Source: Owenia fusiformis (Eukaryota > Annelida > Polychaeta > Sabellida > Oweniidae). Taken from it: a stretch of DNA of 64,000 bases. Where the stretch lies: contig CAIIXF020000003.1 in the NCBI GenBank assembly GCA_903813345.2, positions 3,374,109 through 3,438,108 of the forward strand, in the 5' to 3' direction. Below are positions 40,301 through 46,300 of this stretch, piece by piece. Both the position numbers and the translations under genes were made by a program. Numbering within the stretch: the first letter of the stretch is position 1; each line of letters starts with the position of its first letter. Below the pieces are notes generated by a model. The model was not told the origin of the DNA and ran no database searches. It was given only the letters and a program-made list of their open reading frames with translations.

Positions 40301-43300
40301 TAAGCAAAGCAGAACAATATACACAGTAATAAATTTCAGGATTGTGGTTTTTACATAATATAATATAGGGTGATCCAAAAATGAAGCCTTCTAATTTTCG
40401 AATAACTTTCTCAATTATGATGGAATCTCCTTCAGAGGAAAAATGTGATCTCCCAAAACATCAAAGTTTGATGATGCAATATGAGCATAAGACTGTTTCA
40501 AGTAATGGAGACTCTATAAGTTCAAGAAGATTTACCATGATAACTGAGAAAGAAATTCAATGGTATGGAATTACTTTTTGGATAATATTGTATAACTGTT
40601 TGTATTCTTCCCAGTTTAAATGAAAATACTCAAAAATGGCATATCTAGACCCAATTTGGTCAGATTTGTGAAAAAGGAAATTTCAAAAGAACTTGATAGA
40701 GAAAACTATTTGGTTAATATTTCTAGATTTTTGAAACCAAATCCTTGATTCTATTTCCAGTTGCACAAAATCGAGGGATGCCTAGTATGATGGTATAAGA
40801 TGGGAACAAGAACATACTAAAAGCAACAAATAGATATTAAAGCATTGCTTAACAAATGGGGTCTAATTTTAAACGAACATTATACAGGTCAACCAAAAAA
40901 TGCAGCCCTCTATATTTTGGAATAACTTTCTCAATTATGATGGAGTTTCATGAAGTGAACTCTATAACCAGAAGAAAATTCAAGATTAATCTATCAAAAT
41001 TGAGAATTTTATTCTTATTTTATTATCATTTTATGTATTAAAATTTAGAGAGTCGAACTTTCTGAATCACCCTGTATATTATGAAGGCATAACAAATAGT
41101 TCAATACATAAAAGCATCAATAAATTCTTTGGAGTCTAGCTAAACCATATGGAAAGGACCTAATATATGCACAGGGTTCCAAGTTTTTCAGAATTAATTC
41201 ACTAAATCTTTCCATATTTCCATGTGCAACTAACATAAAACATACACATGTCTATGGCTTTGCAGAAAAGTAATTCTTTGGAGTCTAGCTAAACTGTATG
41301 GAAATTAGCACCTAATGTATGCACAGGGTTCCATCCAAGTTTTTCAGAATAAATTCACTAAATCTTTCCATATTTCCATATATAACTAACATATAACATA
41401 CACATGTCTGTGGCTTTGCAGAACTGCATTATAATCCACAAGTAAAAAAGTTTGTAAGAAGAAAGTTGGCAATGAATTTGATTGCTACAAGCAAAAGAAT
41501 AATGTATATTCAGGATGATAGAGATAATGGTGGAGGAAAAACCTACGCACTTGCAAACCTTTCAATAAAAACTGAAGTGAGCTTTAATATTCTAATATAA
41601 GCATTTTTTGATAAGCTGCTGTTCCCATACAAAATTAATGAAAATTTGTCTTGTTGGTTTTTAAATTTGGTGTAATCAAAGTTAAGAAAAGCTCTTTAAC
41701 AATAATTCTTTCTTTAATAATAATTCAGAAACGTTGAATCAGGCTAAATTGTCAGAGACTTTACTTTACTATTTCGGCTCTGATTGAAAGGTAATTGATA
41801 TTTCGATAAAATTGGCCCATTGTTTGACATGATTTTGAAGTCTGTAGGAACCCTGATGAACAAATTCTACAAACAAGCAAATACATTATACAAACAAGTA
41901 AGAATTAAAAAACATTCAATGATAAAAATTAGTGATAAAAAACATACAAATAATGTAAGCCATAAAGCCAGGATATTTTTTGGATCAAATGGACAACACA
42001 TTAAGCATTTACAAAATAAAAATACTGAAAATGGGGTTGCTTGTTATAATGTATACAAGGGGTCTGCCTACTGAATGCAAATAGGTTGCATTTGCTTTAT
42101 GTGTATAAGGGGCCTTCCTACCTGGCCTGATATCGGGGGACATAATTTAGCCGATATATACTTTTTTAGCTGCGCCATAACCCCGGGATCCAAGTTGGTC
42201 AGTTCACAATAGCCACCTCTGTAGCCACATCTGAAGCATATGACATTATTTTAGCCACATATGTAGCCACATCTGAAGCAGATGCAATATTTCAGGTCAA
42301 AGGTCAAGGTTATTTATTCATACACTGCAAATATATCCAGTTCTGCAAAGAATAATAGCACCTTACAAAATACTGGGCAACTTGGATTAAATGCATGCGA
42401 TCTTGAAAGGAGGAATTTCAGGCTTAGAAAGTGATTCCAGAATGTCATTTGAAATTTTTTCTTAGTAAAATTAGCTTGTTAAAATTCCATCATGACATGT
42501 TATATATCATCTTTATTTTGCATAACATTTAACAACTATGAATTATGAATTTGTATTTTTTCAAAATATGTGACTTTTGAGCCTTCCTTGATTTTTCAAT
42601 GATTTTTGTATAAATAATATGTTATTTGTCCTCCTCTAATTCTCGTGATTTTAGCATTAATGGTATTCTTGTGACATTTTGAAAATCTTCCAACATCAAA
42701 ACTCCTCCTTTGGGTAAACACAAACTATGCGCAACTCAAGCAAAGCAAAGCATTAAGTTATAATTACAGTATTTAAAATACAATAACAATTAATAACAGC
42801 AACATAAACAAAACACTGATAAAAATTCATTAAAGAGAAAAAAAAGGAAAACTGATCATTCAAAGAAACGGTACAACCTGTCGCATACTAGCATTGGTTT
42901 TGTCATTCTGACAGTTTCAATGAATGAATAGAATTTACAGATTGGTTATTTTCAAGTGTCCTCTTATGTTTTATAAGCAAATGAAGACCATACTGCTTGG
43001 TTCATTTGTATAATGATTTTAAATGTTTGTGACTGACTTTTCACAAAATGTTTCCTTAAAGCAAGACCTCCAATGATAAACATAATGCATGTGCCATATT
43101 CATTCATGTTCAAAAATATTTTAAGATCTTTGTAGATTTTTAAGCAAAAATTCTTTTCATTCTTTATTTCAATTTGGTTATATCAACAACCCAATTATGG
43201 AATGTGGAGTGATTCACTACAGCACCACTTTGTGAGTAACCACCATAAATGTGATGTTAATTTTTCAAATTACCCCCTTAACTACTGTACTAAGTCTGTG

Positions 43301-46300
43301 TATTGAAATCTTGCAGTTGAAAAATGTGTCATTGGTTGACACAAAGTTGAATTTTAAACCAATAATCCAGCTTATTTTCAACTGTTAGATTTCAATACAT
43401 AAGAATTTGTGGGGGTGATTTGAAAAATCCCCATATTTATGGGGGTAATTCGTGAGTTAAACAAACACAAGTTACTACAAGGTATAAAGTGCCTAGAGCA
43501 TGCCACAAGACAGGAGAATTAACTACAAGTCTTTAAACTCAAAAGGTTGACTGTTGTTAGGTGAACCTTCCGTAGTCTCAGTTAGGTATACAGACACTCA
43601 GATTACATCATCTACAGTTTTTTGGTGTTGTAAATTTCTTAACTATACAATAAAGCATATTCTTAAATTGTGCAGTCAACAAAATGTTTTCCTTTGCTTT
43701 ACATGTCTCCATGACAACCATATTTTTGTGATTTAAAATCCAAGTGTCTGTATCTAAACTTAGGGGACATCTAAATGATACACTGAATGATGAAAATCCA
43801 CAAAAGTAAGAATTTTATTTCAGAATGACTCCAACAATTTTTTGCATTTTTTCCCGACAAATTGCTTCTTCCTTTTATATAAGAAATAAAATTACTTCAA
43901 TCAATAAGTTGGTTATTAATAACTTTTGTGGATGTGCACTAACAGTTTGCCCTTGACCCCAAAAGGCATTTCTAACACCTTGCCCTTTAAAATGCACATT
44001 AATGTTAACACCTCGCCCTTAAAAGCGACTTTTGCTAACACCTCGCCCTTCATAAGTGTACCTGTCCAGAAACAGAAGGACAAAGTTTGGCTGAGATAGA
44101 CTTAAGCAGCTGGTCATGAATGTCAGGATCAACATTGATCAACTCGCAATATCCTCCACGGAATCCACACCTAAAATTTTGTACATAGTAACCATGGTAA
44201 CTAAGAAATCAGAAAATATATAATTTGTTGCTAATGAGAATTTTAATTGCAAATACACCAGGAAAAGATTGAGTTCTGTCTACTTAAGTTTCAATATACC
44301 CTGAATCATACCCTCACAATACCCTTAATCATACTTTGTATACCCTGAATCATACCCTCTATATACCTTAAATCATACATAATATATCCTGACTCATACA
44401 CTCAATGTACCTTAAATATTACTTTATGAACCCTGAATTATACCCTCAAAATATACCCTCAAAATATCCATGAGTAGAGATACCCTAAATATATCCCAAA
44501 TTGTACCCAGAGTTATGCACTCAACAAAACCTGGAGCATACACCGCACATTCCCTGAATCATACCCTAAATACAAGTGCTTTGTAAAAATATAGATCTTG
44601 CAAAGCAACCCTCCATATATAAGCAAAAACAACACTAAGAAGCATCATTTTTTCAACTTTGAAACATAGTACATGTATGTTACTTCATTAATATAAGAAC
44701 ATTGCCTCAAAACTTCAAATACTGTTACTAATGAAGCGCTTAACTTATAACTTGAAATTATAATATCTTTTAGTTTTAAATTACAATGTGACTCTGCTTT
44801 AATATTTGAAGCTACTGCAAACATTCACTGACATTAAGTGAAAACTGACATGGTATTCTAGATTTTAAGTTCTATTAAATTACACAATTAAACTCTAAAA
44901 ATGTTGGGTTCAAAAGGTGATTTCCATCTTCAGAATTTTCCTTTTTCCCGGATTTTCACTTCAATCTGATGCATTATTTTGCCATTCTTGGGTAAAAAGC
45001 CAATTCAACAGATTAAGTAGATTCAATTCAACAAACATTGAATGACATTTAGAATGACTCCCTCAATAATCATAAATCATACTTACTCTCCCATGTAACC
45101 CTTTGATGTTGACATAAATGATGCAAGTTCCATTTCATTATATGGTGCACCCATTTCTATCAGGACTTTCTTAAAGGAGAACCACTCAGATCCTTCAGCG
45201 TAAATATTGTGTTGGTAAACCTGAAAAAAAAAAAAAATGCTGTATTCAACCAGAATTTGAAAAAAAGATCCAAAAAAGGTTAAAAGATATGTTCGGTTTG
45301 AAATCTTTTTGATTCAAATGTGAACAGAAAATAATGTTCAGTGGCATATAATATACACATATACATTAATAGGGTATAATAGGGTATATGTGTACAAAAT
45401 ATGAACAAAATCAGGGTAATGGTATTTGAGTTATTGCCCGGATGGACGGACAGACTTACAGAAAGACAGACGAATGGTGGCGTTCCCTATATCCCTCCGA
45501 TTTGGACTTTATTTCAACAGTTCTAGTTCAAAAACTGTCTGAAAAATATATCTGTAAAACATTGCTGAGGCTGAGTTGCCTTCTTTGCTCCATTGGTAGG
45601 GAATTCAAATTTAATTGGAGCATAACTTAAAGCGTAGGTCTACTTACCTCATCTGCCATGATGAAAAGGTTTTCTTCATAGGCGAACTTTATGATAGCCT
45701 CCATGTTAGCCCTGGTTAGAACTTGCCCTACAACCAAAAGGATAAAGAAAAACATATACAATTCACCTGGTGAGTAATTTCAAATATGGTTACAAAAAGC
45801 CTCGAAACCGATTGTCAGTCAAAAATTGGTGGGTTTAACACAATGTCTCTTTGGTAACAAGTGAAAACATAACAACAAATAAACATGAGCGCATGTTTAA
45901 ACAATTGATGAAGAAATGGACATGAGGCAAATATTTTATCGGTACACATATTTATAGACATAAATTGCAGTAAATATGTTATAATTGTCATAGATACATT
46001 TGTAAATCTTTATTTTTCAATACAAAAATGGCAGGCCTTGGTCCATTTAGGAAGTGTGTTTCATGTTCTGTAATTTATCAAACACAAATTTACCCTAAAC
46101 CATAAATATACAAATATTATCATCTATTATTGAATATAGAAATCAAAAATTAAGTTTTTTTATTTTTAAATTACCTGTTGGATTCCCTGGATTTATTACA
46201 CAAAGAACTTTGGGTATACATTGGTCCTTGGCTTCATTCAGACTACGCTTTAATTCTTCTATACTCAACGCCCATCCATTGTCTTCATCCAAATAGTAAC

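What the first reader, a model, noticed from the sequence alone, without database searches (positions are those of the whole stretch)
42122..44170. Two interchangeable, probably mutually exclusive exons next to the active-site lysine of alanine aminotransferase
Exons 9a (44170-44062) and 9b (42230-42122) are both 109 nt, in the same phase, with good splice sites and open frames, and share 25 of 36 residues. They keep every family hallmark ([21 protein letters not shown]) while differing at 11 positions. Using both would break the frame. The exon directly follows STSKGYMGE, so a choice would swap residues beside the cofactor site. I know of no described ALT with such a switch.
Basis: partly seen in the sequence, partly recalled or inferred. 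Interest (0 to 1): 0.88.

Follow-up and report, generated by a model that had tools for sequence, protein, structure and literature searches.

The report
Swappable active-site exons in alanine aminotransferase
The one alanine aminotransferase gene found in this animal carries two old, interchangeable versions of an exon beside the active site, so it probably makes two forms of the enzyme by picking one exon or the other, though no RNA has yet been seen.

Summary
A complete 13-exon alanine aminotransferase (ALT) gene lies on the minus strand. Position 9 is filled twice: 9a (44170-44062) and 9b (42230-42122), each 109 nt, same phase, GT-AG, open, 25 of 36 residues identical. Either exon gives an intact 508-residue ALT; both together, or neither, give early stops. 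Synonymous sites are saturated while the protein is held (omega far below 1, 2dlnL 44 against neutrality). None of the 11 differences falls on 13 positions (near-)invariant in human, barley and bacterial relatives. 9a and 9b are equally distant from human ALT2 (22/36 each). No second ALT locus or further exon-9 copy was found. Best reading: an old tandem exon duplication kept as a pair made mutually exclusive by the reading frame, in an apparently single-copy enzyme. Against: no transcripts and no animal relatives could be examined; both acceptors are the weakest in the gene; 9b lacks a consensus branch point within 60 nt and has a decoy acceptor, leading to a stop, 42 nt upstream; recent loss of 9b cannot be excluded. 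New member of a known kind; the literature searches listed no ALT example.

The parts
44062..44170 (-). Exon 9a of ALT, 109 nt, residues 332-367 (plus last base of codon 331)
42122..42230 (-). Exon 9b of ALT, 109 nt, alternative to 9a
42210..42292 (-). 42-nt tandem duplication (2.0 copies, 88% match) covering the 9b acceptor and first ~21 nt of 9b; the upstream copy is a decoy acceptor (its AG ends at 42273) that would read into a stop
45087..45220 (-). Exon 8 with the Schiff-base lysine motif STSKGYMGE; donor gtaagt shared by 9a and 9b
39254..39319 (-). Exon 10, shared acceptor for 9a and 9b
51292..51486 (-). Exon 1 (coding part, ATG at 51486); N-terminal extension before MNPHVK could be a mitochondrial presequence (inference, not tested)
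51025..51114 (-). Exon 2
49435..49546 (-). Exon 3
48765..48898 (-). Exon 4
47682..47798 (-). Exon 5 (the last copy of a tandem array; the copy with the full-length end and donor gttagt)
46175..46304 (-). Exon 6
45648..45727 (-). Exon 7
38453..38608 (-). Exon 11
37980..38092 (-). Exon 12
37372..37462 (-). Exon 13 with stop codon TAG

Best explanation
9a and 9b are an old tandem duplication of exon 9 of an apparently single-copy ALT gene, both kept by purifying selection and used one at a time. Shown from sequence: homology, equal length and phase, coding constraint, intact ALT with either one, early stops with both or none. Inferred: exclusivity is enforced by frame. Each exon is 1 nt longer than a multiple of three, so joint inclusion or skipping gives premature stops followed by downstream introns and should be removed by nonsense-mediated decay; steric blocking is not the cause, because 1831 nt separate the exons. 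Inferred: weak acceptors let tissue or condition factors choose. The choice keeps the catalytic lysine (exon 8) and the arginine aligning with the PLP-phosphate ligand, but changes the residue just before that arginine (F/Y), the helix face that follows, and S/P and V/I in the LCP-x-x-SGQ loop, which by alignment lies 3-4 residues after the position that in AlaA reaches the partner subunit's active site. Expected outcome: two ALTs with the same reaction but tuned affinity, stability or dimer behaviour.
For: Gene model and frame logic. Codon model: 9/7/23 differences at codon positions 1/2/3; omega=1 rejected, 2dlnL 44.2; omega 0.05 costs 1.7 and 0.1 costs 3.5 log-likelihood units against the best fit. 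13 of 36 positions identical in human ALT2 and barley and in 67 or 68 of 68 distinct bacterial segments; 0 of 11 differences fall on them, P 0.0023. Equal rates: 3 sites where only 9a matches human, 3 where only 9b does; mean identity to the 68 bacterial segments 17.19 and 17.24 of 36. No second ALT found and no further exon-9 copy by protein (2 places, 9a and 9b) or of 9b by DNA (1 place, itself). ALT identity: PDB best match human ALT2, E 1e-210, residues 1-472; PF00155. Weakest acceptors of the gene are exactly these two, as for regulated exons.
Against: No transcript evidence at all. No consensus branch point (yTnAy) in 60 nt before 9b, and a decoy acceptor 42 nt upstream that would put a stop in the mRNA. 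Up to about 8% neutral divergence since a loss of function would leave 9b as intact as it is (6.5% of 4000 simulations at 0.075, 3.3% at 0.1). Across the 11 differing sites 9a fits the family slightly better than 9b (summed BLOSUM 5.1 against 4.0). No enriched splicing-factor motif beyond YGCY in intron 9a-9b (18 against 11.7 expected, z 2.3, the highest of 27 tests) and no intron-intron stem above shuffles, so no regulatory mechanism is identified.
Confidence: 0.7

Rival explanations
1. 9b is a formerly used alternative exon that has recently fallen out of use in this lineage; the decoy acceptor and weak 3' splice site are the first signs of decay.
For: Decoy acceptor duplication before 9b, no yTnAy branch point within 60 nt; neutral drift up to about 0.08 substitutions per site would not yet show.
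Against: Frame, borders, all 13 invariant positions intact; 9b evolves no faster than 9a against human (3 against 3 sites); its donor (gtagga, score 8.8) is better than that of 9a.
Confidence: 0.17
2. The exon came from a second ALT gene (now lost or not found), by insertion of a fragment into the intron, so the low omega reflects selection on that gene and not on 9b in its present place.
For: A divergence of 11 of 36 residues is what two old paralogues would show; the tree on 36 residues does not firmly join 9a and 9b (support 67; only 0.4 log-likelihood units better than 9a with human).
Against: No second ALT locus found (6 of the 10 PF00155 places fetched and none is an ALT); same orientation, right place between E8 and E10, exact exon borders; six sites shared by 9a and 9b but not human.
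Confidence: 0.06
3. 9a and 9b are both used but in an uneven way: one is the default and the other mainly yields non-productive transcripts (through the decoy acceptor or through joint inclusion) that lower ALT levels, a poison-type control.
For: Decoy acceptor reads ECGYICG-stop; joint inclusion stops 9 codons into 9b.
Against: A mere poison exon would not need to keep an ALT-like protein sequence with saturated synonymous sites.
Confidence: 0.07

Closest known systems
[quoted passage not shown]
   Same: A central metabolic enzyme with two homologous neighbouring exons, one used at a time (abstract start of PMC3498831 in a search listing).
   Different: Different enzyme family; the PKM switch is shown by RNA and protein and alters allosteric behaviour (recalled); here no RNA, and the exon lies beside the cofactor site.
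Tandem duplicated exon substitution events of human genes (PMC9741552; passages) and human mutually exclusive exons (PMC5740500; passages)
   Same: Homologous neighbouring exons, same frame and length, ancient, conservative changes; 377 (60%) of human clusters have lengths not divisible by three, as here.
   Different: The words aminotransferase and GPT do not occur in the main text of either paper; those events are validated by reads.
Human ALT2 (3ihj) and barley AlaAT (3tcm)
   Same: Same enzyme over the whole length, E 1e-210 and 5e-136; 64% and 47% identity.
   Different: I know of no alternative exon at this place in either (recalled); vertebrates have two ALT genes, GPT and GPT2 (recalled; ALT1 and ALT2 named in PMC4094517).
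E. coli AlaA (4cvq, PMC4094517)
   Same: Shares Lys240 and Arg248 with the lysine of exon 8 and the arginine of exon 9 by alignment.
   Different: Distant (E 8e-27); the paper's Ile276* reads Leu in the aligned PDB chain by my count, so the partner-subunit contact is assigned with caution.

Membership tests
Mutually exclusive tandem-duplicated exons (criteria as in PMC5740500) | Neighbouring exons with sequence similarity and same reading frame | tested here: met
   25 of 36 residues identical, same phase
Mutually exclusive tandem-duplicated exons (criteria as in PMC5740500) | Same or similar length, no in-frame stop, GT-AG borders | tested here: met
   109 nt each, open, ag|..|gt
Mutually exclusive tandem-duplicated exons (criteria as in PMC5740500) | A basis for exclusivity: frame shift on joint use, steric blocking, or U2/U12 mismatch | tested here: met
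   Frame shift and stop on joint use. Steric blocking not applicable: 1831-nt intron. U2/U12 mismatch not tested formally.
Mutually exclusive tandem-duplicated exons (criteria as in PMC5740500) | Reads that join each exon to both neighbours and not to each other | not testable with these tools
   No RNA data on hand
Mutually exclusive tandem-duplicated exons (criteria as in PMC5740500) | Both exons conserved in related species | not testable with these tools
   No collection of animal genomes; only constraint within this genome tested
Competing-RNA-structure type of exclusive splicing | Intron stems that pair one exon's side at a time | tested here: inconclusive
   Best stems between introns 8, 9 and 10 reached by 32, 11 and 20 of 40 shuffles; conservation could not be used
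Alanine aminotransferase (GPT/ALT) | Full-length match to a solved ALT and to Aminotran_1_2 | tested here: met
   3ihj E 1e-210 over residues 1-472 of 472 given; PF00155 E 4e-37
Alanine aminotransferase (GPT/ALT) | Schiff-base lysine and PLP-phosphate arginine present in both isoforms | tested here: met
   Lys in exon 8 (STSKGYMGE), Arg at position 4 of 9a and 9b; aligned with AlaA Lys240 and Arg248
Alanine aminotransferase (GPT/ALT) | Transaminase activity | not testable with these tools
   No assay

The most novel reading that the evidence does not exclude
A single ALT gene yields two catalytically distinct ALTs by a PKM-like exon switch beside the PLP site and the dimer contact, doing by splicing what vertebrates do with two genes, and so sets the direction or capacity of alanine-pyruvate exchange by tissue or oxygen state. 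The pair is old enough that it should be found across this animal's wider group.
Probability: 0.4. Interest if true: 0.68.

Novelty: new member of a known kind. Interest (0 to 1): 0.52.

Why it matters
Splicing switches that alter the working core of a metabolic enzyme are few; PKM is the textbook case. An ALT with such a switch would link splicing to the exchange between alanine, pyruvate and glutamate, and gives a clean natural experiment: two enzymes that differ at 11 residues around one active site. It also predicts that gene annotations of this animal group which show a single exon 9 are incomplete.

Tried and rejected
Chance or artefact: rejected; next-best windows for the exon queries have E of 0.12 and 0.16. 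9b as a repeat element: rejected, one DNA place in the genome (that search skips very common words). Other ALT genes: the ALT query gave 19 places, 18 in this gene, the other at E 0.18. The PF00155 search listed 10 places but missed this gene's own exons, so genome searches here are not exhaustive. I fetched 6 of those 10: five long open frames show no significant ALT similarity and look like alpha-oxoamine synthases (recalled resemblance), the sixth is a distant aminotransferase, 29% over 73 residues; four were not fetched. Organism: not identified; a search for COX1 found nothing. RNA stems and splicing-factor motifs: nothing convincing. Tree on 36 residues with 14 randomly chosen bacterial segments: 9a+9b support 67, alternatives only 0.4 and 2.4 log-likelihood units worse, so unresolved. 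In one search the branch length ran to its upper bound, so its dS (44) has no meaning and omega is only 'much below 1'. NCBIfam gave no match above its cut-offs among the 25 families shown for the 9a protein. Searches translated the exons out of phase and were set aside.

Literature: ten searches. Two returned no paper. In one search, 12 of 243 papers were listed, none of which holds the words alanine aminotransferase. No listed title or abstract start describes an ALT with alternative exons; I did not open those papers, except passages of PMC9741552, PMC5740500, PMC9013439 and PMC4094517.

Full report
What is there. The window is part of a 498-Mb genome in 525 contigs, an animal not identified further. 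On the minus strand, exons from 51486 to 37372 join into a 508-residue protein that matches human ALT2 over residues 1-472 of the 472 given (E 1e-210) and barley AlaAT (E 5e-136); identities 64% and 47%. Exon 8 ends in STSKGYMGE. Two exons can follow it: 9a and 9b, both 109 nt, both completing the same split codon, both ending in SGQ before exon 10. They share 25 of 36 residues and 69 of 109 nt. Intron lengths are 916, 1831 and 2802 nt.

Frame logic. Either exon gives an open reading frame; both give a stop 9 codons into 9b; neither gives a stop 7 codons after the join. Since introns follow, established knowledge says such mRNAs are targets of nonsense-mediated decay. Thus exclusivity can be enforced by frame without special machinery, as in 60% of human clusters (377; passages of PMC5740500). 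Steric blocking (defined there as less than 50 bp) does not apply.

Selection. Third codon positions carry 23 of 39 differences in the 108 codon bases. A codon model puts omega far below 1 (2dlnL 44.2 against omega=1; omega 0.05 costs 1.7 and 0.1 costs 3.5 units; branch length at its bound, so synonymous sites are saturated). In 80 bacterial ALT-like loci (45-50% identity), 68 distinct exon-9 segments were read. Thirteen positions are the same in human, barley and 67 or 68 of 68 of these; none of the 11 differences is among them (P 0.0023; I picked the 13 from the table). 9a and 9b match human at 22 of 36 each, with 3 private matches each, so neither runs faster. The two differ at 11 sites, each differs from human at 14; ML distances 0.63 against 0.80 and 0.89. 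If rates were even, the duplication is roughly three quarters as old as the split from the human line; with 36 sites this is rough. It argues that the pair is old. The tree does not settle whether it arose after that split.

What argues against. Both acceptors are the weakest of 13 in the gene (9 of 17 pyrimidines). 9b has no yTnAy motif in its last 60 intron bases; 9a has one at -39. A 42-nt tandem duplication (42292-42210, 88% match) copies the 9b acceptor and the start of 9b; use of the upstream copy reads ECGYICG-stop. This may be regulatory or the start of decay. Simulation shows that 9b would stay this intact in 6.5% of runs after 0.075 and 3.3% after 0.1 neutral substitutions per site, so loss older than about that is unlikely but recent loss is possible. 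No RNA data exist here.

What the choice would change. By alignment the arginine at exon position 4 matches Arg248 of AlaA, which with Ser239 and others holds the PLP phosphate, and Lys240 matches the lysine of exon 8 (passages of PMC4094517). The F/Y difference sits just before that arginine. The paper says that Ser296* and Arg292* of the partner subunit in AAT are replaced by Ile276* and Tyr15 in AlaA; by my count residue 276 aligns with the conserved Leu at exon position 29 (a Leu in the chain, against the paper's Ile), so S/P at 32 and V/I at 33 lie in the same loop. Hence the swap leaves first-shell residues alone and alters second-shell and surface ones: expected to tune and not to abolish. 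This step is inference.

Genome context. The ALT query gave 19 places: 18 in this gene and one at E 0.18. 9b as protein finds only 9b and 9a; as DNA only itself. Six of the ten PF00155 places were fetched and none is an ALT. These searches are not exhaustive: one search missed this gene's own exons.

Literature. Ten searches of open-access papers listed no ALT with alternative internal exons (judged from titles and abstract starts). Human tandem duplicated exons are described as ancient (passages of PMC9741552).

Verdict. Observation confirmed. The mutually exclusive reading is the best explanation (0.7) but its use in mRNA is untested. New member of a known kind; interest 0.52.

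Noticed in passing
47690-48443, minus strand: Exon 5 of the same ALT gene lies in a 168-bp tandem array (4.5 copies, 95% match): four further, very young copies precede the full one. They end GAGTACAAT-GTACAT in place of GCCCACCAG-GTTAGT; a cassette ending at AAT|GT would be 108 nt, a multiple of three, but this was not tested.
   Followed up: partly
46593-47563, 49728-50895, 38622-39103: Introns of the ALT gene hold large minisatellites (29 bp x 33.5, 19 bp x 61.5, 53 bp x 9.1); the last ends about 15 bases upstream of the exon 11 acceptor.
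   Followed up: no
52310-53390: Two copies of a segment around GTCTGGCCCAGTTATCTACTCCCGTACTCGTAGATCTGGGCCAGACTAGCTCC lie in opposite orientation about 1 kb apart, like the ends of a transposable element (seen by eye).
   Followed up: no
20822-23854, plus strand: Long open frame with a CCHC knuckle-like motif and an integrase-like HHCC stretch, probably a retroelement (by eye).
   Followed up: no
L081-L085 (G000 C8, C12, C3, C1, C3): At least five long single open frames (397-450 aa) that match PF00155 and look like alpha-oxoamine synthases (recalled resemblance) lie scattered in this genome: an unusual set of apparently intronless copies.
   Followed up: partly
L001-L080: Bacteria (Holophagales, Spirochaetota, Myxococcota, Elusimicrobia and others) encode ALTs 45-50% identical to this animal enzyme over almost its whole length.
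   Followed up: no
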